From Bacteroidia bacterium (GTDB lineage: Bacteria; Bacteroidota; Bacteroidia; UKL13-3), in contig JALONK010000004.1 in assembly GCA_025454975.1 (NCBI GenBank), positions 1 through 64,000 of the forward strand: a stretch of DNA of 64,000 nucleotides, written 5' to 3'. Position 1 is the first letter of the stretch, and every line of letters begins with the position of its first letter. Below, piece after piece: positions 4,030 to 15,963 of this stretch. The notes beneath the pieces are model-generated. The model was not told the origin of the DNA. It saw only the letters and a list, made by a program, of their open reading frames with translations, and did no database searches. The position numbers and the translations under genes are program-made.

Positions 4030-5913
4030 TTAGAGTAATATAAAATTAAAATATCCAATTGACGGATTATCTAACTCTCCAATCAACATCGCTCTATCAA
4101 GAAGCATATTTGATTCTTCACAACATGTTTCCGGTAACAACGAACAGTTATGACACGCTGATAGATTGCAAGAGTTCGGTCCTTGCCCATCGCTGTCAAT
4201 GCAGATAGGGTCGCTTGAACACCATCTTGCATTTTCAATAGCATTATAAACTATCGTTTCAAGATTGCCAGGCTTCCCTTGACGAACAAGCCCACCTAAA
4301 GAACCTTCTGAATCACCAGATGCAGTGTAAATTAAGACACCGTTCATGGTTTCATTTAATAATTCAAGATTGCAATAAATTCTTTCTCTCAAAGCAGAAC
4401 TTCCATAACCACATTCGTAACTGAACTGGTTTATTACCAAATGAGCAAATGTGTGAATCAAAATAAATTCAGGTTTTATTTCCCTTCTCTTTTGTCCTTT
4501 CAATTCCCGTGGACGGTTGTAGTTGTCAGATAAAAAATTTGCTCTCTTAATCACTTCATCTTTTGCAGCCCACTCTTTCAAACGCTTCTCATTGAACTCA
4601 AAGAAAACACCTTCGCCTCTCACAACTACTGCCGGAAGCCATTCAATACGCTGTCCAAGTTTTATGAAGTTCTTTTTTTCAGTCAATGTTTTTCCATCAT
4701 CTGGAAGCCATCTTGAAAATCCTACGAAAGCTCTTGTCTCTCTTAACTTGTGAACTAGTCCAATACTCTTAAATCCTGACTGAATAATTTTAAAATCGGA
4801 ATCTTGCTCATAATTTACTGACGATTCCTTTTCACAATAAAAATCTTCATTTTCCCAACCGCCCCCAGCAATTAAATAATCATACTCCATTTTTCTGTAC
4901 TTTTCTTCTTCATCTCCCATTTCATTTAAATTCGGTCCTGTTTGTTTCTTATTGGCTGCATCCAATAATTTCTCTGTATAGTAATCTCTTTTCTCAGGAT
5001 TAAATTTTTGTTCTGCAACCAACTCAAAACGCATTCTATCAAATTCGCCATTTACCAATCCGGAGGATAGCCAATTCCAATTCTTTTCTAATACTTCAAT
5101 AATTTTTCTGTCAATTGATTTTTCCCATTGAGGCAAATAGATTGAACTTCGAACCTGTGAGAAGTATACATTTGATGCACCTTTTTGAACTACCCTTAAG
5201 TCCTCTCCACAATGAATTGCATTGTCTCTGTCAGCTTCTTGTCCTAACCACGGTCTACCACCTGAACATGTTACTCCAATTTTTGTAAGTGATTTTTCGT
5301 TGAAAGCACCCGCCATTGTTTTGTGTGCTCCACAACTACAAGTAATTTCAATACCAGATAATGTACCTGAACTTCTCCCTGCTCTCAATCTCAAATTATG
5401 TTGTCCTTCAGGACGAGCGCCGTTATGCACCCATTGCATAAAAGGGAAATCTTCAATGTGCCCCTTTTCACAAATAGCGATAAAGCGAACCGGAATCAAT
5501 CGCTGTCTTTTCCTTTCTGCAATTTCGTTACAAGACCTTCCTGAGCTAAAAGAAATTCCTGAGCAAGTTGGTTTCTGTGAATCGTAAATTGAAACTTTCT
5601 CCATGTGTCCGCACCTTGTGCAATAATGCCAACGTGGAAATCTTACGAATGGAATTTTGAGTGACGGATTTGTAACACCTTGACCAGGGTCTCTGAAATC
5701 AGGCGGCAATCTGAAATCTTTTACACCTAATCTTTTTGCTAATCTTTCTTCGGTTACTTTAAATTCATCCAACTCAGAAATCGTTCTGAATTTTTCTTCC
5801 CACATATCAAGCCCGACAACCATCAATGATTCATCCTTTGGAAAATTAATCATTTGTCCAATCCCCCACGGAGAAATTAACTGCGACCTTCTTATTGGTT
5901 TTTTAGCTGGCAT
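4030..5913 (-). CDS. drmB: DISARM protein DrmB (DUF1998 domain)
   Basis: This 627-residue protein is the last gene of the five-gene operon. The N-terminus carries the DrmB-type opening RRSQLISPWGIGQMINFP. Cys-rich stretches with probable zinc ligands follow: C98/C101/C117/C128, C148, C192/C194, C216 and C235. The C-terminal DUF1998 region contains LIHTFAHLVINQFSYECGYG, then LIYTASGDSEGSLGGLVRQG, and ends in a Cys cluster (CNLSACHNCSLLPETCC). In DISARM, DrmB associates with the helicase DrmA to recognise and act on incoming phage DNA. It starts three bases after the drmA stop, so the two are probably translationally coupled. No terminator of clear quality was found in the 92 bases before the convergent ABC transporter gene. 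Confidence 0.9.
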   Translation of the reverse strand: MPAKKPIRRSQLISPWGIGQMINFPKDESLMVVGLDMWEEKFRTISELDEFKVTEERLAKRLGVKDFRLPPDFRDPGQGVTNPSLKIPFVRFPRWHYCTRCGHMEKVSIYDSQKPTCSGISFSSGRSCNEIAERKRQRLIPVRFIAICEKGHIEDFPFMQWVHNGARPEGQHNLRLRAGRSSGTLSGIEITCSCGAHKTMAGAFNEKSLTKIGVTCSGGRPWLGQEADRDNAIHCGEDLRVVQKGASNVYFSQVRSSIYLPQWEKSIDRKIIEVLEKNWNWLSSGLVNGEFDRMRFELVAEQKFNPEKRDYYTEKLLDAANKKQTGPNLNEMGDEEEKYRKMEYDYLIAGGGWENEDFYCEKESSVNYEQDSDFKIIQSGFKSIGLVHKLRETRAFVGFSRWLPDDGKTLTEKKNFIKLGQRIEWLPAVVVRGEGVFFEFNEKRLKEWAAKDEVIKRANFLSDNYNRPRELKGQKRREIKPEFILIHTFAHLVINQFSYECGYGSSALRERIYCNLELLNETMNGVLIYTASGDSEGSLGGLVRQGKPGNLETIVYNAIENARWCSSDPICIDSDGQGPNSCNLSACHNCSLLPETCCEESNMLLDRAMLIGELDNPSIGYFNFILL

Positions 5914-5916
5914 AAT

Positions 5917-8900
5917 TTAATTGTCAATGTTTAGGTATTCTGCCGGAATAATATACGCTTCACAAGTGGAATCAACATTTCTCATTGATGTTGGTGTTGA
6001 CCATGCTCTTGCTTTTATATCTTCTGAAGGATTTGTTCCTGCGGGATACATTAGTGGAATGTTTGTTTGCTGTCCGAATGAACCATACACAAGTGGTAAT
6101 TCATTTTTCCAGTATTCCAGTTTTTCTTCAATCAGTTCAAGTGTCTTGTCGTATTCTTCATCATCAATCAAATGAACTCTGTCAAAAATTATTTGGGTTA
6201 CTCTTTCAATGATTTCTTTTTGAGGAAAAGGTCTTGGAGCTGTTGCACTTTGGTCTGTTGAGTAAAATCTAATCAGTCCAACTAAGATTGCATGCAACCC
6301 TCTTTCTCTAGCCGGTGCTGAAAAAGGTGTAACACTTGTTGGTTCAACTTTGCTGTAAATTTTTGAGTGATATTCTTGGAAATGTTCAAAGTGCGAACGA
6401 TCTCTTGGTTTTGAGCAGTTGTAAATTGTAAAGACAAGTCCGGGACATCTCTTTGAACGACCAACACGGCTTGTTGCCTGAATATATTCCGATGTTGTTT
6501 TTGGTTGACCGATAACGGTCATCAAACCTAGTCGTGGAATGTCAACGCCAACTGAAATCATATTTGTTGCAAGACAAACATCAACCGGATATTCATTTTT
6601 ATCTCCTGTCCATGATTTTGATAGTTGTTCCAAGTATTCAGGAATGTCATTGCTGTTAATACGACTTGTCAATTCAATATTTCTGTTGATGAATCTTCTT
6701 TCATCACCTTTGATTGCTTTCCGTATCCAAATGGAATTCATGTATTCTCGTATGTCTGCACGAATGAGTGTAGCTGCATGTCCTAGCTCCCGAATACTGT
6801 TGAAGTAAGTCAAGGCAGTCCAATATGGATCTCTTAAAATTTCTTCTGCAACTGAAATTGATTTCACAGATTGAAGTAAAGCGGATAAAATCCTTACCTG
6901 TGCAGTTGCATGTGAAGGTAGAGCAGATGCAAATATGCCTGTGTAAATTCTGCCTGTGCTTGTTGTGTCCTCGTATGCAAAGAATGAATCACCCGCACTT
7001 AAACATTGTGCAGGAAAAATATTGACATTTTTTGTCCCTCTGCCATAGAGCGAGTTGATTTGTTCTTTGGCTCTGCTGATTGTTGCTGACGATGCAATAA
7101 TTTTTGGTTTGATACTATTTGCTGTGCAAAGTTCTTCAATCATTGTTTCATACAAACCCACCATCGAACCCAACGGACCCGAAATCAAATGCAACTCATC
7201 TTGAATAATCAATTCAGGTGGTGAAAACATTCTTTCATTTCCTCTAAATCCAAAAATTGTTTTCGCTTCTGGCTTCCATGTGAGCATAGCAAACTTGTCA
7301 ACTGTTCCGATTAAGAGAGTAGGTGGGTTGTCATAAATATCTTCGTCAATAACTACAAGAGGTAAATTGAAATCGGGTTTTGAGAAATCGCATTGTTGAT
7401 TGTCGCACTGATAAATGATTGTTTCTTTCGTTCCTATTTTTCTTCTCTTATATCCTTTCACTTTGTTAGTCCTTGCCTCCTTTAGATAACCCATTTGTGA
7501 ACCGCACCATGGGCATTTCAAAACGATGAAAGGATTTTCTTCCTCTCTTCCTTGTTCCATTATCTGAAATGCTCTTCTTGCTTCGTCTCTTCTGTTTGGT
7601 GTTGAATCAGAACCAACCCACAGTCCGATTGTAATTCTCGCTGTGCCTAATTCTTCTTCATTCTCTTTTCTGATTTTATCGCAAGCACAAATCAATGCGG
7701 CTGCTCTTTGAAACTGTTGTGCTGTTAGTAGTCGCAAAGTGTAACGCATGAGCACAGTTGTGCCTGAATCGTTTTTATCTTTTAATCTTTTCAGAAAAAT
7801 TGTAAACGCTGACAATCCTAAATACGCTTCGGTTTTTCCTCCACCAGTCGGAAACCATATCAAGTCAACCATTTCTCTATCTTCATGACTTGGATCCAAC
7901 ATTGCATTGAGGTTCATTAAAATAAATGCAAGTTGAAAAGGACGCCATGATCCAAGCCCTGGTTTCCATGTTGTACTGTCATTTATATTTGGAATTTCAG
8001 CATGCTTCACTCCGGTAATATTTCCTTTATCAATAATCCAGTTTCTCGTTTCAATGCCGTAATGAAGTTGTTGCAATAACATAGCACGATTCATCAACTT
8101 GAAAGCACGATTTACTTTTTCATTGCTTTTTAAAACTTCAATTCCCTCCTTCATTCTTTGTAAACACAAACGACAAGTATCAATGTGACGCAATGCAGTT
8201 TGTAAAAGTTCATCTTTCAATTCTGCGTTTGCAATTTCATTCTGCCTATCTATCCATGCTTCATATTCCGCATTCAGTTTTACAAGATTGGTTGTAATGT
8301 CTTTGTCCGACAAATCACTCAAGTCAAACATTTTAAGCACAACATTTTTCAATTCATTAGGCACGATTGGTTTTATCTCATAAACTGGAATTGCTTCTGT
8401 TGTAATTGAATCAGTAAAGTCAATATCGTTATCATTCCATGCGGGTGAACAACCGTGTCCAACTGCAAATGTTTTTTTCTTTCGGAACAAAAGCAGATTT
8501 GACTTTTCATCATCCTTGTCAGTTTTAGATGCAGCTGCTTTGTATGGACAAAAACATTTTTCATTTGCTGTAACAGAAAATGAAACCTGAAAAAAACAAT
8601 CTTCATTCTTGATATTTTCTGCTCCTCCGGTATTCAGGTTTATCAACGTGAATGTGAGTAGATGAATATTGTTTGTTGAATTATTTTCATGAGTTCTGTT
8701 TCGGATATTCAGTTTGAGATTAATTTCCTTTCCGTCTTTATCAACCAATAATTTGTCAATGGATTTACCTGACTGCAACGGAATTTCACTTGCATTTAAA
8801 GTAAATTCCTGGTCAAGTGAAATTCGGTAATATGCTTTTCTTGAAACAGAAGTTCCATCTTCTTTTTGATAGCTGTATTCTTTTATTTCATAAACACCAA

Positions 8901-9285
8901 GTGTTGCTTTTATAGTGAAGCCGTCTTTCGGAATTATTGAAAAGCAACTGAATCCCATTGCAGAAGGAAGAAATGAATTTGCTAGTCCGATTTCTTCTTC
9001 AAAATCTTCTGCCATGTCTACTGGCGCTTTGCTTTCTTCAGTTTTTACTGGATCATCTGTTTCTTTTTTTTCTTCTTCAAGTTTCTCTAAAACTTTTTCT
9101 TCCTCTGATGTTGTTGAATCAGCTTTTTCAAAAGTTGCCGCCCTCGGAAATAAAACACCGGCACCATATCTTAATCTTGGTGGCTCGTTAAGAAGTATTT
9201 CTTCTCCGTTCTCTTGTATGTGAGGTTTGATTGGGTCAGGCCCTATCAATTCCTTTTTAATGAATTTTAAAATATCGTCTCTCAT
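5917..9285 (-). CDS. drmA: DISARM helicase DrmA
   Basis: An 1122-residue superfamily 2 helicase. The N-terminal 400 residues are a family-specific domain with an acidic, low-complexity stretch at about 55-100. The motor has Walker A FPTGGGKTEA at 478-487, an inserted zinc motif (C591, C594, C627, C632), DELH at 696-699, motif III ASSATI at 731-736, ATNMISVGVD at 906-915 and motif VI QATSRVGR at 936-943. This length and motif set, together with an adjacent DUF1998 gene, define DrmA. In known DISARM systems DrmA-DrmB binds and loads onto invading DNA. Only one base separates it from the upstream NERD-helicase gene, so it belongs to the same transcript. Confidence 0.9.
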   Translation of the reverse strand: MRDDILKFIKKELIGPDPIKPHIQENGEEILLNEPPRLRYGAGVLFPRAATFEKADSTTSEEEKVLEKLEEEKKETDDPVKTEESKAPVDMAEDFEEEIGLANSFLPSAMGFSCFSIIPKDGFTIKATLGVYEIKEYSYQKEDGTSVSRKAYYRISLDQEFTLNASEIPLQSGKSIDKLLVDKDGKEINLKLNIRNRTHENNSTNNIHLLTFTLINLNTGGAENIKNEDCFFQVSFSVTANEKCFCPYKAAASKTDKDDEKSNLLLFRKKKTFAVGHGCSPAWNDNDIDFTDSITTEAIPVYEIKPIVPNELKNVVLKMFDLSDLSDKDITTNLVKLNAEYEAWIDRQNEIANAELKDELLQTALRHIDTCRLCLQRMKEGIEVLKSNEKVNRAFKLMNRAMLLQQLHYGIETRNWIIDKGNITGVKHAEIPNINDSTTWKPGLGSWRPFQLAFILMNLNAMLDPSHEDREMVDLIWFPTGGGKTEAYLGLSAFTIFLKRLKDKNDSGTTVLMRYTLRLLTAQQFQRAAALICACDKIRKENEEELGTARITIGLWVGSDSTPNRRDEARRAFQIMEQGREEENPFIVLKCPWCGSQMGYLKEARTNKVKGYKRRKIGTKETIIYQCDNQQCDFSKPDFNLPLVVIDEDIYDNPPTLLIGTVDKFAMLTWKPEAKTIFGFRGNERMFSPPELIIQDELHLISGPLGSMVGLYETMIEELCTANSIKPKIIASSATISRAKEQINSLYGRGTKNVNIFPAQCLSAGDSFFAYEDTTSTGRIYTGIFASALPSHATAQVRILSALLQSVKSISVAEEILRDPYWTALTYFNSIRELGHAATLIRADIREYMNSIWIRKAIKGDERRFINRNIELTSRINSNDIPEYLEQLSKSWTGDKNEYPVDVCLATNMISVGVDIPRLGLMTVIGQPKTTSEYIQATSRVGRSKRCPGLVFTIYNCSKPRDRSHFEHFQEYHSKIYSKVEPTSVTPFSAPARERGLHAILVGLIRFYSTDQSATAPRPFPQKEIIERVTQIIFDRVHLIDDEEYDKTLELIEEKLEYWKNELPLVYGSFGQQTNIPLMYPAGTNPSEDIKARAWSTPTSMRNVDSTCEAYIIPAEYLNIDN

Positions 9286-9286
9286 A

Positions 9287-11026
9287 CTAATTGAGTTTGC
9301 GTTTAAGAATTTCCCTGTATTCGTTTCTCATTGATTCGGAAATGAAAAGAATCAGTCCGTATCGTGCTCTACTCATTCCAACATACAAAATCGACTTGGC
9401 GATTTCACTTGATAAATCTTCAATGTCGGTTATCAAAATATAATTGCTCTCCATGCCTTTATATGACTGAATAGTTGCAAAGCCATAGAAACCTTGTGTC
9501 GGTGAAATTTCACTGTTGTTTTTTATTTCTCTGATTGAAAAACCTGGAACTGAATCAGAACATGAGTTTTCAAATTTACGTGGTGATAAAATCACCAACT
9601 CATTCAATGGGAGTTTATTTGATGAAAGTTTTTGCAGTTGCTGTGATAGCAATGTTTTCTGGTGAGCTTCATCATTGTAGAAAATGTATTCAACCGGAAT
9701 TCCTTCAAGATGTTCCAACAAAAATGGTGGCTTCTCAAATCCTGAAATCAGAGAGGTTTCTTCTCCAACTTGCTTAGTGTTCCGGCAATTTATTTTGAGC
9801 AGAAAGTTTGAATGTTGACCTGAATCTTTCAGTAAATCAAGCATTTCTGTTCTGGTCAGCTGTGCATAGATTGCTTGCCTTTCAAAATCACCATATATTT
9901 CCCAATTGCCGTTTTGTAGACCACCTGTTACCATTGAATCAAACAGTTTAAGATATTCTTCTCTGATTAAGTCCTGACCCTCATCAACAATCAACTTGTC
10001 AAACTTTTTACTTATTCCTTTTTGATAAATATCTTTCAGTAAAAGCGGCAAATACTTACTGTAGAAATCCTGCTTACTGCTCTGTGCTTTATCGTAGTCA
10101 AATCCTTTTGACTGCTCAAATAAAAAACTGTGCAAACTTGAAACTGTGATTTTGTCTTTCCATTCTTCAACTTGTTTCTGCATCCACTCTCCAATTAAGC
10201 GGTTGTAACAAGTAAGGAAAACAGTTTTGCCTTCTGCTGCTGCTCTCACTGCCGATTCAATTGCAATCATTGTCTTACCCGTGCCTGCACTTCCCTGTGT
10301 AACACTTCTTTCATTCAATTGAATTGAATCAAGAATTCTGTATTGTTCTTCGGTGTATTTTTTTACTTCTTTATCAAACTCAGTCAATCGTTCTTTCACT
10401 GTCCGAACTCTTTCAAAATCTCCTCTCAGAAAATCGCAAAGCGAATTCAAATCGTTTTTATCAGGCAATGAATCCTTTTCTGAAAACCACCTTTGGTTTT
10501 TGTGTTTGTTGGTGAACTGCTTTACAAGATTCTGGAAAAATTTTTCCGTTCCATTTTTGATAGAATCTTTATCAAGAATCTGCCAGGGTTCATATTCAAC
10601 ACTATGTTTGTCAAAACTGATGTGTGGGAATGCACACAAAAAGCCGGAAAGAATTTTTGTGAACTTGTGTCGTTTGCCGAATTCTTTTTCAATAGCTGAA
10701 CGCAAAGAGAACATTGCATCTCTTGCCTGGTTGAATGGACCTACATTGCTTGTGTTTGTTATATTTAATTTGTTTGTGTAGTGCCAAACCCCGTCAATAC
10801 ATTTTACATCACCGCCTTTAACTTCCATTACAAAAATGCCACCGCCTGGAATCAAAATCAGAAAATCAATTTCACCATACAAGCGAACTGTATGCTGCGA
10901 TAAGTTGAGTGAATGAAGCACGATCCAATCTTTGGTGAACTGTCTGTTCTTGAAAATATCAAACAGCATTTTCTCACCTGTGCTTTTGCAGCTTTTATCA
11001 ATATATGGTGGTAGCAGTTTTGCCAT
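9287..11026 (-). CDS. NERD nuclease-like domain fused to a superfamily 1 helicase (in the place of drmC)
   Basis: A 579-residue two-domain protein. Residues about 15-130 are a NERD (nuclease-related) domain with E18, the GEID motif ending at D54, and EVK at 68-70, the acidic and lysine positions expected of a PD-(D/E)XK-type active site. Residues about 225-579 are a UvrD/Rep-like superfamily 1 motor. Walker A is GSAGTGKT at 245-252, Walker B is LIVDEGQD ending at residue 352, then a conserved NCRNTKQ segment, the Q-S-Y-K-G-M-E motif and a terminal VGMSRARYGL motif VI. The start overlaps the upstream stop by one base (TGATG). Known DISARM operons carry a phospholipase-D protein, DrmC; none is present here. 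This nuclease-helicase may supply that activity or form an extra module. Both roles are inference. Confidence 0.85.
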   Translation of the reverse strand: MAKLLPPYIDKSCKSTGEKMLFDIFKNRQFTKDWIVLHSLNLSQHTVRLYGEIDFLILIPGGGIFVMEVKGGDVKCIDGVWHYTNKLNITNTSNVGPFNQARDAMFSLRSAIEKEFGKRHKFTKILSGFLCAFPHISFDKHSVEYEPWQILDKDSIKNGTEKFFQNLVKQFTNKHKNQRWFSEKDSLPDKNDLNSLCDFLRGDFERVRTVKERLTEFDKEVKKYTEEQYRILDSIQLNERSVTQGSAGTGKTMIAIESAVRAAAEGKTVFLTCYNRLIGEWMQKQVEEWKDKITVSSLHSFLFEQSKGFDYDKAQSSKQDFYSKYLPLLLKDIYQKGISKKFDKLIVDEGQDLIREEYLKLFDSMVTGGLQNGNWEIYGDFERQAIYAQLTRTEMLDLLKDSGQHSNFLLKINCRNTKQVGEETSLISGFEKPPFLLEHLEGIPVEYIFYNDEAHQKTLLSQQLQKLSSNKLPLNELVILSPRKFENSCSDSVPGFSIREIKNNSEISPTQGFYGFATIQSYKGMESNYILITDIEDLSSEIAKSILYVGMSRARYGLILFISESMRNEYREILKRKLN

Positions 11027-13533
11027 CAGAAAATTTCTTTTTGAAGTAATCTGTTCACATAACGAGCATCAATACTCTCCCAAGCATTTGAAATCTCTAT
11101 AACTTTCAAAAAAAATACAATTCCTAATCCTTCAATGGATATTTGTTTGTTGATTACAGAACTGTCAGCATACTGATGTATTTGTGCTTTGATTTTGCTT
11201 ATAATAAAATCTGATGCATTGTGTCTCCATCCTTTCATTTTTGTTATTGAATCTCTTACTTTATTAATATTATCACTCAATAAATCTGACTTTGTAAGTA
11301 AAGCGATACTTATTAAGTCCGAATCATCATCGGGACCAATTCTACTTTCATCGTGTAACCACGTTCTGATTGTAACCTCATGTTTCTTGCAGTCATTCTT
11401 CCGCAAATCCTCAACTAATTTTTTGAAATCATTTCCGATAGAAGCGTAGTAATCTTTCAAAAGATTTTTCCAAAGTTCTGTCCACTGTTTTACAGAAGCC
11501 AGTTCTTTTGTGTTGGTATTTTTCTCAACCAACTCAACCAAAATATCTCTGTCGGTGTTAATCAAAGCAATCACATCACCCGTTTGTAACGATTCAACTT
11601 TTCTCCTGTGAAGATTTGCTTTCTCACCCTTTCTTTCAATCAATTCATTTATGACTAAAAATTTGTGCGATTCAGTTGTGTAAATAAAGAAGTCGCTTTC
11701 AAATACAATTCGTTTTGCTTTTATGCTGTCAATCAAATTTCCTTTTGCTACATATCTTGAATACTGTGCATTGTCAAGTTTGAATTCAAAATCTAAAATG
11801 TCAAACGAACTTTCAGAAGTTGTTTCGATTACATCATCACCTGAATACAAATCGCTGAAACCTTTCCGCTTTGATGAATCAGTTTCTGAACGGATGCCTT
11901 TGCTGTTTATGGTTGCCTTAATGTTCTCACTGTATTGTTTGTTTCTTCTTTGCAAAGAGTTGTAATACTTGTTTTCAAACTGGTAGAACAAAACTGTAAG
12001 TTCAGAAAAAAGAAATGATGAAAGAATTCTGTTGATGTTGTTTGACTTTGCCCAGCCAGTTAGAATTGCTTTTTGAGGTTTGCTTGAAAGTAATTTATCG
12101 TTAACATCTGCAACAGATATTACTCTTGGTTTCTGAATGTGTGCCGGAAATGAATCATCCAATGCTTTTGCTTCTTCTTCAGTAGAGCAAATGATGTAAT
12201 CGTATTGCTTTGAACTCATGAGTGTTTTCAACCTTGCACACTTTTCAGATGGCTGTGTTGCGAACCTTGCAATAACCGATTTTAAAAGAGAAATGCTTTC
12301 TTCAATTGGTTTGTGAGAATCACCCAACCATATTCTGCACCGGAGAAACAAGTTTTCAATGGCGTTTATCTTTGAATGGAGAACTGAAATTTCTTCTACG
12401 GCTGGTATGTGTGCAATTCTTGAAATAAGATTGGTCAACTGAATGAGAGAAATTTTCAGAGAAGTCAAATCATTGTTTAATTCATCCTTTTTAATGGAAT
12501 GAATTTTTTGCGTGGTTGCTTCAAGTTCTGCATCAAGGCAAATCTCTTTTACAACATTGAAAGAAATATATTTTCTCATCTTCTTCTCGAAAGAATGAAA
12601 GGGAGAATGGTTTTCTGAATGGTCAAGTTTTAAATTCTCCTTTGTGAAATTAAAAAACTCAAAGCCATAGTTACCGATGGTTTCAAAACTTTCAATCTCT
12701 GATAAATCCGTAATTAGAATTGTTGGAATATTCTTTACATCAATGTCTGAGAAATCAGTTCCTCTTTCCTGTATAGTGGAGAATCCATCAATGATAATCT
12801 TTGAAACTGAACTTGAAGAAAGCGTAACATACAAAGCAAGAGTAGAAAGATTGTTTGAAATAAGCAGTGGGCTGTTTATGTCTGCTGCACCGTTTTCATC
12901 AATCTTACCACTCTGGAAATATTCAGGTAATGAAGCAAGATTCATTGCTATGTCTTCAATAGAATCATCGTAAGATTTGAATTTGCTTACAAGGCAAATT
13001 TTATTTTTCATGAACTCCTTGTTGCCGTAGGTATTTATTTCCAACAATTCGTCAGTTGGAGTAATGATTTTTCCCGGAAGGGCTTGCTTAACTCTTTTTA
13101 GAGATGAGAGTTGTCTTGTTTGTTCTGTTCGTTGAAGTTTTATTGACTGGGTAATGTCAATAGTGAAAGTTGCAATGTTTGGCTCCTTGCCCGCTCTAAA
13201 AGCTACAGAGTTGTTTCTGATGCCTGCCCATTCAACAATTGCATCCCTGTTGAGTTTTAATTTATCACCAAGATTATATTTCCTGTATGATGCAAAGATT
13301 TCCTCTTTGTATTGCGTGTAGTCATTTTCAATTAGAAACAAAACTGTTGGCACAGATAACCATTGAGCAGAATACTCTTTTGATGGAAAAACCAAACAAA
13401 GCTTGTTGGTCGTGTTATTTGAAAAAAAATCAGATATAAGTTGAAGTGAATCTTTCAGAGGCAATGGAAGCGAATGAGCTTCGTCTTGCCCCGCATAAGA
13501 GTATTGCAGTTTCTGAATTAAATCCTGATTCAT
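11026..13533 (-). CDS. drmE: DrmE-like DISARM protein
   Basis: This 835-residue protein has no catalytic motif that I can identify. The assignment to DrmE, the class 2 DISARM protein of unknown biochemical function, rests on three points. Its length fits. It lies between the cytosine methyltransferase and the DrmA/DrmB genes. Its C-terminal region has RTWLHDESRIGPDDDSDL (about residues 725-742) followed by a D-x-I-x-x-A pattern, which resembles DrmE-type C-termini as I recall them. A middle segment alternates strands and helices (YIICSTEEEAKALDD, then AILTGWAK), like a nucleotide-binding fold without a P-loop. It is 22 bases after the methyltransferase stop and overlaps the next start by one base. 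The family call is less certain than for its neighbours. Confidence 0.6.
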   Translation of the reverse strand: MNQDLIQKLQYSYAGQDEAHSLPLPLKDSLQLISDFFSNNTTNKLCLVFPSKEYSAQWLSVPTVLFLIENDYTQYKEEIFASYRKYNLGDKLKLNRDAIVEWAGIRNNSVAFRAGKEPNIATFTIDITQSIKLQRTEQTRQLSSLKRVKQALPGKIITPTDELLEINTYGNKEFMKNKICLVSKFKSYDDSIEDIAMNLASLPEYFQSGKIDENGAADINSPLLISNNLSTLALYVTLSSSSVSKIIIDGFSTIQERGTDFSDIDVKNIPTILITDLSEIESFETIGNYGFEFFNFTKENLKLDHSENHSPFHSFEKKMRKYISFNVVKEICLDAELEATTQKIHSIKKDELNNDLTSLKISLIQLTNLISRIAHIPAVEEISVLHSKINAIENLFLRCRIWLGDSHKPIEESISLLKSVIARFATQPSEKCARLKTLMSSKQYDYIICSTEEEAKALDDSFPAHIQKPRVISVADVNDKLLSSKPQKAILTGWAKSNNINRILSSFLFSELTVLFYQFENKYYNSLQRRNKQYSENIKATINSKGIRSETDSSKRKGFSDLYSGDDVIETTSESSFDILDFEFKLDNAQYSRYVAKGNLIDSIKAKRIVFESDFFIYTTESHKFLVINELIERKGEKANLHRRKVESLQTGDVIALINTDRDILVELVEKNTNTKELASVKQWTELWKNLLKDYYASIGNDFKKLVEDLRKNDCKKHEVTIRTWLHDESRIGPDDDSDLISIALLTKSDLLSDNINKVRDSITKMKGWRHNASDFIISKIKAQIHQYADSSVINKQISIEGLGIVFFLKVIEISNAWESIDARYVNRLLQKEIF

Positions 13534-13555
13534 ATTGGTTCACTTCAATGTTGCT

Positions 13556-14794
13556 TTAGCCGTTTAGTAAAAGATACTTTAATGATGCTGCAATTTTTTC
13601 TGCCATCAATGGCGGAACTGCATTTCCAATTTGTTTGAACGCTGCTGTCCTACCTCCTTCAAAAAAGTAATTGTCAGGGAAAGATTGAATTCTTGCGGCT
13701 TCACGAACTGAAATAGAGCGCACTTGTTTTGGATCAGGATAGATATAATAATGACCGTCTTTCGCAATATGAGCAACTACTGTGTGGGAATATCCGGTTG
13801 GGTCAATCACTTTGTATCTGTCTAAAAATGCTTCGGTGTTTTTATGAGTTTGTAATCTTTTTGGAATATCGTTGTACTTTAGTCTCTGTCGGTCATTCAA
13901 CCATTTATCAATTGCAAGGGAATAAATTTCCAAATCCCTGTCGTTGTGGTTTCGTGTTATGTGTTGCGTTGTGTAATTGATTCCATTTCTTGTTTCTGTT
14001 TTCTTCAAATACTCATTTATATTTTTTGTGTAGCCGACAACTTCAAGTTCTTGTCCTGGCTTCAAATAGGGTAGGTCAAAAAACAAATCTCGTTTTGTCT
14101 GCCAGTTGTTTTCCATTTTTTGAAGTTCGGGAAACTGGAATTTAGTTTTTCCTTTTCTTCCGATAATAATTACCCTTCTTCTTTTTTGCAGCACTCCATA
14201 TTCTTCTGCATTTAAAACTTTCATATCGGCTGAGTAACCTATTTCCTCAAACAGTTCCAACATTTCATTAAGATACTTTGCATTTCCTGCTGTTAGCAAA
14301 CCCAACACATTTTCAAATACAAAGTATTTTGGCTTATAACGAATGAGAAACTTTGCATAGTAGCGGAACAAAAAATTTCTTTTGTCTCCTTTCATTCTGT
14401 TTGGATCTCGGCTTCTTCCCACAAGTGAATACGCCTGACAAGGCGGACCACCAATGATTACATCAACTTTCTTTTCGTCAAGTTGCGAATCAATTATTTT
14501 AAAGATGCTTTCAATTGTATTGTCAGTAATTTCTTCATTGATAACAGATTCAAGCAAATGCTGTGGGATGGAATCCCATAATTCATTTCTTGAAATGTCT
14601 TGTTGTAGATAACTATAATACTTTGTCAGATTTTTTTTCAGACTGAAGTGGTGAAATGCAATTCTGGTTTTCAATGTGTCGGCTGCTTCCGCACTCATCT
14701 CCACATGTGCAACCGGCTCAAACTTCTCACGGATAAAACCTTCCGAAAGTCCACCTGCACCGGCAAAAAGGTCTATGTAATTGAGTTTGCTCAT
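13556..14794 (-). CDS. drmMII: DNA (cytosine-5-)-methyltransferase, DISARM DrmMII
   Basis: This 412-residue C5-cytosine methyltransferase is the first gene of the operon. Motif I is FAGAGG at 10-15, motif IV is GGPPCQAYS with the catalytic C119, motif VI is ENV at 161-163, motif VIII is QKRRR at 203-207, and motifs IX/X end in ARIQSFPDNYFF and QIGNAVPP. All motifs are intact, so activity is expected. In class 2 DISARM this enzyme methylates host sites so that self DNA is spared. No restriction endonuclease gene is adjacent, which supports DISARM rather than classical restriction-modification. The target-recognition region between motifs VIII and IX is about 150 residues, and the recognised sequence cannot be read from it. 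No convincing promoter was identified upstream. Confidence 0.9.
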   Translation of the reverse strand: MSKLNYIDLFAGAGGLSEGFIREKFEPVAHVEMSAEAADTLKTRIAFHHFSLKKNLTKYYSYLQQDISRNELWDSIPQHLLESVINEEITDNTIESIFKIIDSQLDEKKVDVIIGGPPCQAYSLVGRSRDPNRMKGDKRNFLFRYYAKFLIRYKPKYFVFENVLGLLTAGNAKYLNEMLELFEEIGYSADMKVLNAEEYGVLQKRRRVIIIGRKGKTKFQFPELQKMENNWQTKRDLFFDLPYLKPGQELEVVGYTKNINEYLKKTETRNGINYTTQHITRNHNDRDLEIYSLAIDKWLNDRQRLKYNDIPKRLQTHKNTEAFLDRYKVIDPTGYSHTVVAHIAKDGHYYIYPDPKQVRSISVREAARIQSFPDNYFFEGGRTAAFKQIGNAVPPLMAEKIAASLKYLLLNG

Positions 14795-15729
14795 GCTTAA
14801 TTTACTACGATAATTTTTTTAAATGTATCAAAATTTATTCAAGGTTTTCTTTTATATTATTACTTTTAGTCTACGTTCTAAGATGGTAAAAAACATTCCA
14901 ACCCTCATATTTAAAGTCAGCAGTGTTTTCCGCGTCTCCTTGTTTGTTGCCTTCAATTCTGGTCTGCATAACGTAAACATAATTTAATATTCGATGGTGA
15001 ATAAGTATGCGGGAGCTTGCACTCTTGTGACTATCATATACATATTGGTTTCTGTGAGGGTAGTTAGAGGAATTTGTGCAATATACTCAGATAAATGAAT
15101 TTTAATTTTTTTGTGCGGTGACGACGCTTTAATTTTTTCGATGCTTAGCAATGAGCACCTGACTTTCCGACCAAACTGTCCCAAAGTTATATTGCCTTTA
15201 TGTAGCTTTTTTATAATCAAATTAATTACATTAAGTTTAATTTCAGTTTACAGCAAATCGTTTAGATCTTCAATTGTATTAGTGTTGAGTTGGTAATAAA
15301 TGAATGTTATTCCCCCACCCATCATCCCAATCTTAAATACAATAACTTAACCCATTCCCCTTTTTTAACTAAATTTTCAATAAAACTTTTGGCTTGAAGT
15401 TGAGTTATGGTTTTCATTGTTATAAACGGATATATACGGATACAAATAAGTAAATTAAATATTAAATTCCAAGAAAATTTATGAGTGATTATGTGCAAAT
15501 CATCTAAAAGCTAAACTATGCCTATATAATAGCTTGCCAAAAATAATGCTAGTGTTTTTGCATATTAAAGAAGTAGGTAAATTTATTGTATTGCAAAAAA
15601 CTTAAAGTGTTGATTGTATTACGTCAAAAAGCATATTCATTGTCCCCCCCCCAATTAGCAATTATTTTATAATGAGTTAAACTAAAGAAAACATTCATCA
15701 ATCAATTTTGATGCATCTTAATCTTGAAT
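14795..15729. other. 935-bp gene-poor spacer upstream of the DISARM operon
   Basis: By far the longest non-coding stretch in the window. On the minus strand it holds a 78-codon frame (14984-15220). In another frame a 32-codon stretch from an ATG at 14969 to a stop at 14871 has protein-like composition (GDAENTADFKYEGWNVFYH). Neither resembles anything I recognise, and they may be decayed gene ends. A run of nine C lies at 15644-15652. No tRNA, insertion sequence or terminal repeat was seen. The operon promoter should lie in the first 150 bases, but no clean TTTG-N18/19-TAnnTTTG match was found there. Confidence 0.5.
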
Positions 15730-15948
15730 ATGAAAAATTTACTTTACTCATTTGTACTTTTTATGTTAGGTGTAGGTTTTTTAACCGGTACCCACCTCAA
15801 CCTGCAATCAATTGCATTCTCGGCGGTTTGTTTTATGTTTTTGTCGTTCCCGCTTATTAGTTGTATTGGAAGTAAATTGTTTAAAAAATCAAACCTCGCT
15901 TCTAATGACAATTCTCAAGAGCGCAGTGATATAGGCTTTCAAGCCTAA
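15730..15948 (+). CDS. Small two-segment membrane protein, unknown
   Basis: This 72-residue frame begins at the ATG at 15730; an in-frame TTG six bases upstream is a less likely start. Two hydrophobic segments are visible, at about residues 3-22 (LLYSFVLFMLGVGFLTG) and 28-48 (IAFSAVCFMFLSFPLISCIG), followed by a charged, probably cytoplasmic tail rich in S, N and D. The composition is that of a real membrane protein, but no family is recognised. It is a plus-strand gene isolated between the spacer and the convergent FAH-family gene 15 bases away. A run of nine C lies about 80 bases upstream and could affect its expression. Confidence 0.5.
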   Translation: MKNLLYSFVLFMLGVGFLTGTHLNLQSIAFSAVCFMFLSFPLISCIGSKLFKKSNLASNDNSQERSDIGFQA

Positions 15949-15963
15949 CTATTGTCGTTACGC

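What the first reader, a model, noticed from the sequence alone, without database searches (positions are those of the whole stretch)
9287..11026. NERD-helicase as a possible replacement for the DrmC nuclease
The protein joins a NERD domain with E18, D54 and E68-x-K70 at catalytic positions to an intact superfamily 1 motor. A nuclease plus translocase in a single chain resembles stand-alone nuclease-helicase defence proteins such as Nhi. Within DISARM this gives the effector step both unwinding and DNA cutting, so the system could destroy phage DNA rather than only block it. Domain content is seen in the sequence; the effector role is inference.
Basis: partly seen in the sequence, partly recalled or inferred. 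Interest (0 to 1): 0.75.

Follow-up and report, generated by a model that had tools for sequence, protein, structure and literature searches.

The report
Helicase-nuclease core of DrmC-less DISARM systems
A single protein that joins a DNA-cutting domain to a DNA-walking motor is a fixed, co-inherited part of a branch of the bacterial anti-virus system DISARM that lacks the usual DrmC nuclease, which makes it the best candidate for the missing cutting enzyme in those systems.

Summary
Window 9287-11026, minus strand, encodes a 579-aa NERD + superfamily 1 (UvrD-like) protein, third gene of a tight operon DrmMII - DrmE-family - NERD-helicase - DrmA - DrmB with no DrmC. E18, D54 and E68-x-K70 are intact. 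D54, E68, K70 and Q100 are invariant in 40 of 40 relatives down to about 20% identity; E18 is kept in 39. The motor motifs are intact too.

The gene is not a passenger. Ten close relatives (72-98%) sit between DrmE and DrmA in the same way. In 395 Bacteroidota genomes, 10 of 12 carriers also carry DrmA (p = 5e-13). NERD-helicase and DrmA distances track each other (Mantel r 0.97). NERD-helicases joined DrmAB in at least three lineages; in one they occupy exactly the drmC slot.

"Replacement for DrmC" is partly supported. The two never share a locus and DrmC is absent from the window's DrmA clade, but I found no DrmC-bearing ancestor of that clade. Nuclease activity, target and effector role remain inference. 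Both structure predictions failed (pLDDT 44 and 40).

I found no description of this association in the papers held. Verdict: a new, widespread DISARM variant with a testable candidate effector.

The parts
9287..11026 (-). NERD + superfamily 1 helicase, 579 aa, the finding
10670..10981 (-). NERD (PD-(D/E)xK-type nuclease-related) domain, residues 16-119
   Evidence: PF08378, 38-40 bits against a cut-off of 22.1
10973..10975 (-). E18 codon, first catalytic-type residue
   Evidence: kept in 39/40 relatives
10865..10867 (-). D54 codon
   Evidence: kept in 40/40
10817..10825 (-). E68-V69-K70 codons, E-x-K motif
   Evidence: E68 and K70 kept in 40/40
9329..10357 (-). SF1 (UvrD/PcrA/GajB-like) motor, residues about 224-566
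10271..10294 (-). Walker A GSAGTGKT, residues 245-252
9971..9985 (-). motif II DEGQD, residues 348-352
9362..9388 (-). motif VI LYVGMSRAR, residues 547-555
13556..14794 (-). DrmMII, C5-cytosine DNA methyltransferase, 412 aa, first gene of the operon
   Evidence: PADLOC DrmMII 5e-166, PF00145
11026..13533 (-). DrmE-family protein, 835 aa; stop and NERD-helicase start share one base (TGATG)
   Evidence: NF038316 E 1.6e-167 over cut-off; PF24957; no hit to the equivalog NF038323
5917..9285 (-). DrmA, YprA-like SF2 helicase, 1122 aa; starts one base after the NERD-helicase stop codon
   Evidence: NF038325 992.9 bits over the 950 cut-off
4030..5913 (-). DrmB, DUF1998/MZB protein, 627 aa, last gene of the operon
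   Evidence: NF038324 476 bits over the 240 cut-off

Best explanation
The protein is a core component of a DrmC-less, class-2-like branch of DISARM and most likely its nuclease effector. Proposed working: (1) DrmMII marks the host's own DNA by cytosine methylation (inferred from its family). (2) DrmAB loads on unmodified DNA with single-stranded 5' ends and starts to translocate (reported for a class 1 DrmAB, PMC9142583; inferred here). (3) The NERD-helicase joins or follows DrmAB; its UvrD-like motor moves along the exposed strand and feeds it to the attached PD-(D/E)xK-type NERD active site (E18, D54, E68, K70), which cuts it. Shown here: domain content, conserved motifs, fixed operon position, shared inheritance with DrmA and purifying selection. 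Inferred: physical contact with DrmAB, metal-dependent DNA cleavage, direction of movement, and phage DNA rather than host DNA as target.
For: Domain and motif conservation across 25-40 relatives. DrmE - NERD-helicase - DrmA - DrmB order in ten close relatives where the contigs allow. In 395 Bacteroidota genomes 10 of 12 NERD-helicase carriers also carry DrmA, against 20 DrmA carriers in all (Fisher p = 5e-13). In those loci the gene lies within the DrmA operon. DrmA and NERD-helicase trees show the same groups and distances correlate at r = 0.97. dN/dS 0.07-0.14. In relative L014 NERD-helicase and DrmA are nearly identical to the window's (dS 0.07 and 0.11) while DrmMII is not (dS 1.5), so the motor pair moves together while the methyltransferase is exchanged. 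DISARM lacks an agreed essential nuclease: DrmC is reported dispensable and often missing (PMC9142583).
Against: No activity was measured. AlphaFold models were too poor to show the active-site geometry (pLDDT 43.9 whole protein, 40.0 NERD alone). Some DrmAB loci have neither NERD-helicase nor DrmC (7 of 23 Bacteroidota loci chosen by DrmA alone, some of them cut by contig ends), so DrmAB may not need a nuclease in the operon. The genome also holds two PLD proteins that could act in trans.
Confidence: 0.6

Rival explanations
1. The protein is a core DISARM part but its motor is the important half: it remodels DNA or displaces proteins so that DrmAB can load, or senses replication forks, and the NERD site only nicks or has a regulatory use.
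For: SF1 proteins recur around DrmAB without a NERD domain: UvrD-type genes just before drmA in L033-L035, L075 and L098, and NERD-less SF1 genes in the drmC slot in L029, L084, L099 and L100.
Against: The nuclease residues are kept as strictly as the Walker A residues over 40 proteins; a site without catalytic use would be expected to decay.
Confidence: 0.17
2. The nuclease acts on the infected cell's own DNA or on all DNA without distinction, giving abortive infection rather than selective destruction of phage DNA.
For: NERD domains elsewhere are interpreted as suicidal backup effectors (PglW of type 2 BREX, PMC12839542).
Against: The operon keeps a cytosine methyltransferase, as expected for protection of self; the DISARM relative ARMADA is reported to act directly, without abortion (PMC12458937).
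Confidence: 0.15
3. A stand-alone Nhi-like defence gene or repair helicase that merely lies in a defence island beside DISARM.
For: NERD-helicases of the wider family also occur away from DISARM (L032, L088, L090-L092, L094, L097).
Against: One-base overlap and one-base gap to its neighbours, constant position, parallel phylogeny with DrmA, strong co-occurrence.
Confidence: 0.05

Closest known systems
Class 2 (type II) DISARM: DrmMII, DrmE, DrmA, DrmB, DrmC
   Same: DrmMII, a DrmE-family protein, DrmA and DrmB in one operon.
   Different: No DrmC, which PADLOC's type II model requires (PMC9252829); a NERD-helicase is inserted between DrmE and DrmA; DrmE matches the subfamily NF038316 but not the equivalog NF038323.
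PADLOC RTasNERD-Hel (PDLC03813) and C3a187 NERD+UvrD (PDLC01087)
   Same: Full-length match to both, 124 and 77 bits, residues 1-566.
Nhi, nuclease-helicase immunity (Staphylococcus)
   Same: Nuclease and helicase in one chain; Nhi-like proteins are listed with NERD (PMC10952713).
   Different: Nhi is described as a multifunctional enzyme that degrades phage replication intermediates (PMC11084316); this protein is fixed in a DISARM operon and no Nhi-named model was among its hits.
TALON (ARMADA-like YprA helicase plus NERD endonuclease)
   Same: YprA-family helicase paired with a NERD nuclease (PMC12458937).
   Different: TALON is a separate, rare, mostly Chloroflexota system with TPR-CSD and TBP genes; none of these are here.
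ARMADA ArmD (GajB-like UvrD helicase with RelE-like domain)
   Same: SF1 motor fused to a nuclease domain next to a YprA helicase (PMC12458937).
   Different: RelE-like RNase instead of NERD; BrxHII helicase and PglX methyltransferase instead of DrmE and DrmMII.
DrmC of class 1 DISARM
   Same: Nuclease-type partner of DrmAB; a sister lineage of DrmA carries a NERD-helicase in the same slot.
   Different: Phospholipase D family and no motor; never in the same locus in this sample.

Membership tests
DISARM (any class) | DrmA helicase and DrmB DUF1998 protein adjacent in one operon | tested here: met
   NF038325 and NF038324 over their cut-offs, genes 3 bp apart
DISARM class 2 / type II | DrmMII cytosine methyltransferase | tested here: met
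   PADLOC DrmMII 5e-166
DISARM class 2 / type II | DrmE | tested here: inconclusive
   DrmE_fam NF038316 over cut-off, DrmE_C PF24957 over cut-off, but no hit to the equivalog NF038323 at E 0.001
DISARM class 2 / type II | DrmC phospholipase D nuclease | tested here: not met
   no such gene in the operon; a Bacteroidota DrmC protein finds nothing in the genome; the two PLD proteins elsewhere were found by PLDc_2 but not by DrmC
DISARM class 2 / type II | protects against phages | not testable with these tools
   needs phage challenge
NERD domain, PD-(D/E)xK clan | PF08378 over cut-off with E...D...ExK residues | tested here: met
NERD domain, PD-(D/E)xK clan | restriction-endonuclease-like fold with the four residues in one site | tested here: inconclusive
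   model confidence too low, pLDDT 44 and 40
SF1A helicase (UvrD/PcrA/Rep type) | motifs I, II, III, IV, V, VI | tested here: met
Nhi | member of the Nhi protein family | tested here: inconclusive
   no Nhi-named model among PADLOC hits up to E 0.001; no Nhi sequence was compared directly
TALON | ARMADA-like YprA with TPR-CSD and TBP genes | tested here: not met
   DrmA is a DISARM DrmA and the operon has no such genes

The most novel reading that the evidence does not exclude
DISARM is a DrmAB loading platform onto which different helicase-nucleases have been plugged several times; in the window's clade the NERD-helicase is the obligate degradative effector, so DrmC-less DISARM forms its own class that acts by processive, motor-driven DNA destruction.
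Probability: 0.4. Interest if true: 0.75.

Novelty: new variant of a known kind. Interest (0 to 1): 0.55.

Why it matters
[quoted passage not shown] A co-inherited protein with an intact nuclease site and motor gives a concrete gene to delete and residues to change. The association runs through Bacteroidota, one Planctomycete MAG, Actinomycetota, Deinococcota and Alphaproteobacteria, and PADLOC's published type I and II definitions, which require DrmC, would not recognise these loci as complete systems. The recurrent pairing of DrmAB with different SF1 proteins suggests a common design.

Tried and rejected
Structure of the whole protein and of the NERD domain from 11 close sequences: confidence too low, so no fold search was made. 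PDB search with the NERD profile: only a chance hit to pyruvate oxidase. Viral contigs: one weak partial hit, nothing useful. DrmE against plasmids: no match. Empty-site comparison: the flanking ABC-transporter and FAH genes lie on different contigs or far apart in nine same-family genomes, so insertion at that junction could not be tested. First exclusion test over all loci (p about 0.02) was discounted: some plasmid loci had been chosen because they carry a NERD-helicase, and one locus (L031) was miscounted because a pentapeptide protein with a NERD-like stretch triggered the label. A reading as a chance island neighbour was rejected on co-inheritance. Promoter and terminator scans were no richer than shuffles. 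A wider survey in other phyla by the genome search was not possible because the centre must be a genome handle and mine are all Bacteroidota.

Full report
What is there. The ORF at 9287-11026 is on the minus strand and encodes 579 aa. Its first 120 residues match the NERD domain above Pfam's cut-off and the rest holds a UvrD/GajB-like superfamily 1 motor. It is the third of five genes in one orientation: DrmMII, DrmE family, NERD-helicase, DrmA, DrmB. The stop of drmE and the start of the NERD-helicase share one base (TGATG), and drmA starts one base after the NERD-helicase stop, so the genes are probably translated together (inference). No DrmC lies in the operon. A Bacteroidota DrmC finds nothing in the genome, although that empty search had no positive control in this genome; two PLD-domain proteins lie elsewhere.

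Active site. In 18 NERD domains as little as 19% identical the only fully invariant columns are P6, E18, D54, F55, E68, K70, P97 and Q100. In all 40 NERD-helicases found, D54, E68, K70 and Q100 never vary; E18 varies once, in a protein outside DISARM. The motor motifs are present and nearly invariant. Rates of change show purifying selection equal to that of DrmA. The site is therefore conserved; that it cuts DNA is inference. The two AlphaFold runs were too poor to judge geometry.

Co-inheritance. Ten close relatives, 72-98% identical, keep DrmE - NERD-helicase - DrmA - DrmB as far as the contigs reach, nine in Bacteroidota records and one in a Planctomycete MAG; DrmMII stands in front in all whose contigs reach that far except Pedobacter L020, and DrmE is broken in L018. 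In an even draw of 395 Bacteroidota genomes, 12 carry a NERD-helicase of this kind and 20 carry DrmA; 10 carry both, p = 5e-13 (the window's own genome is among the ten). Of the other two, one contig ends beside a DrmE-family gene and one is a stand-alone gene (L088). Pairwise distances of NERD-helicase and DrmA correlate at 0.97 over 22 loci.

Not one lineage but several. The DrmA tree and the NERD-helicase tree share three groups: one with the gene directly before drmA, which holds the window, Rhodococcus opacus and several Bacteroidota; one with it directly after drmB, in the drmC slot (Rhizobium, Azospirillum, Shinella, one Bacteroidota), with a UvrD-type SF1 gene before drmA; and a Bacteroidota group with it two genes before drmA. 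A fourth small pair (Deinococcus L029, Bacteroidota L084) branches apart. The drmC-slot group lies with the DrmC-bearing class 1 DrmA in one clade (support 99), the clearest case of one nuclease in place of the other. NERD-helicases of that group lie among NERD-helicases from outside DISARM, which suggests separate recruitment (inference; deep branches are long).

Exclusion of DrmC. No locus in the sample has both. In the Bacteroidota genomes chosen only by DrmA, 14 of 23 assessable loci have a NERD-helicase, 2 have DrmC and 7 neither. In this phylum the NERD-helicase is thus the commoner nuclease-type partner. The exclusion by itself is not significant there (p = 0.14); it is the phylogenetic split that carries weight.

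How it may work. For a class 1 system DrmAB is reported to load on unmodified 5'-overhang DNA, and the authors propose that it then may recruit DrmC or another nuclease; DrmC did not co-purify and is described as dispensable (PMC9142583). A protein with its own motor and nuclease site would fill that gap without DrmC. Contact with DrmAB, polarity and target are not shown.

Known or new. PADLOC has general NERD-helicase models but its type I and II DISARM definitions require DrmC (PMC9252829). The 2025 YprA survey mentions many uncharacterised DISARM-like classes and a NERD nuclease in TALON; the passages I read name no NERD-helicase in DISARM (PMC12458937). My searches found no paper describing it. 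The original DISARM paper and all supplements were not available, so prior mention there cannot be excluded.

Noticed in passing
L029, L084, L099, L100: Superfamily 1 motor genes of about 360-460 aa without a NERD domain follow drmB, in the drmC slot, of some DISARM-like loci, in L084 and L099 followed by a gene of unknown kind (584 and 483 aa).
   Followed up: partly
L033-L035, L075, L098: A UvrD-type helicase directly precedes drmA in loci with the order UvrD - DrmA - DrmB - NERD-helicase (L098 has a different DEAD-box helicase after drmB).
   Followed up: partly
L020:6724-7476: In Pedobacter sp. ASV28 no DrmMII was found before drmE; an AbiGi-type (antitoxin family) gene stands there instead.
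   Followed up: no
L014 compared with window 4030-14794: NERD-helicase and DrmA are nearly identical (dS 0.07 and 0.11) while DrmMII is far apart (dS 1.5), a sign that the methyltransferase is exchanged between otherwise equal systems.
   Followed up: partly
L018:7865-10001; L110:7018-8208: Broken versions: DrmE split into two frames in L018, an inverted DrmA fragment at the contig end in L110.
   Followed up: no
L022: A Planctomycete (Candidatus Loosdrechtia) MAG contig carries the operon at about 80% protein identity to the window's, which suggests transfer between phyla or a binning error.
   Followed up: no
L102, L077, L086, L103, L104, L108, L109: DrmAB loci with a DrmE-like or unknown 790-860 aa gene before drmA and neither DrmC nor NERD-helicase nearby; their DrmA fall in a separate group.
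   Followed up: partly
window 14795-15963: About 1.2 kb without a convincing gene upstream of the operon, with a pair of 17-nt inverted arms (15336-15352 and 15576-15592).
   Followed up: no
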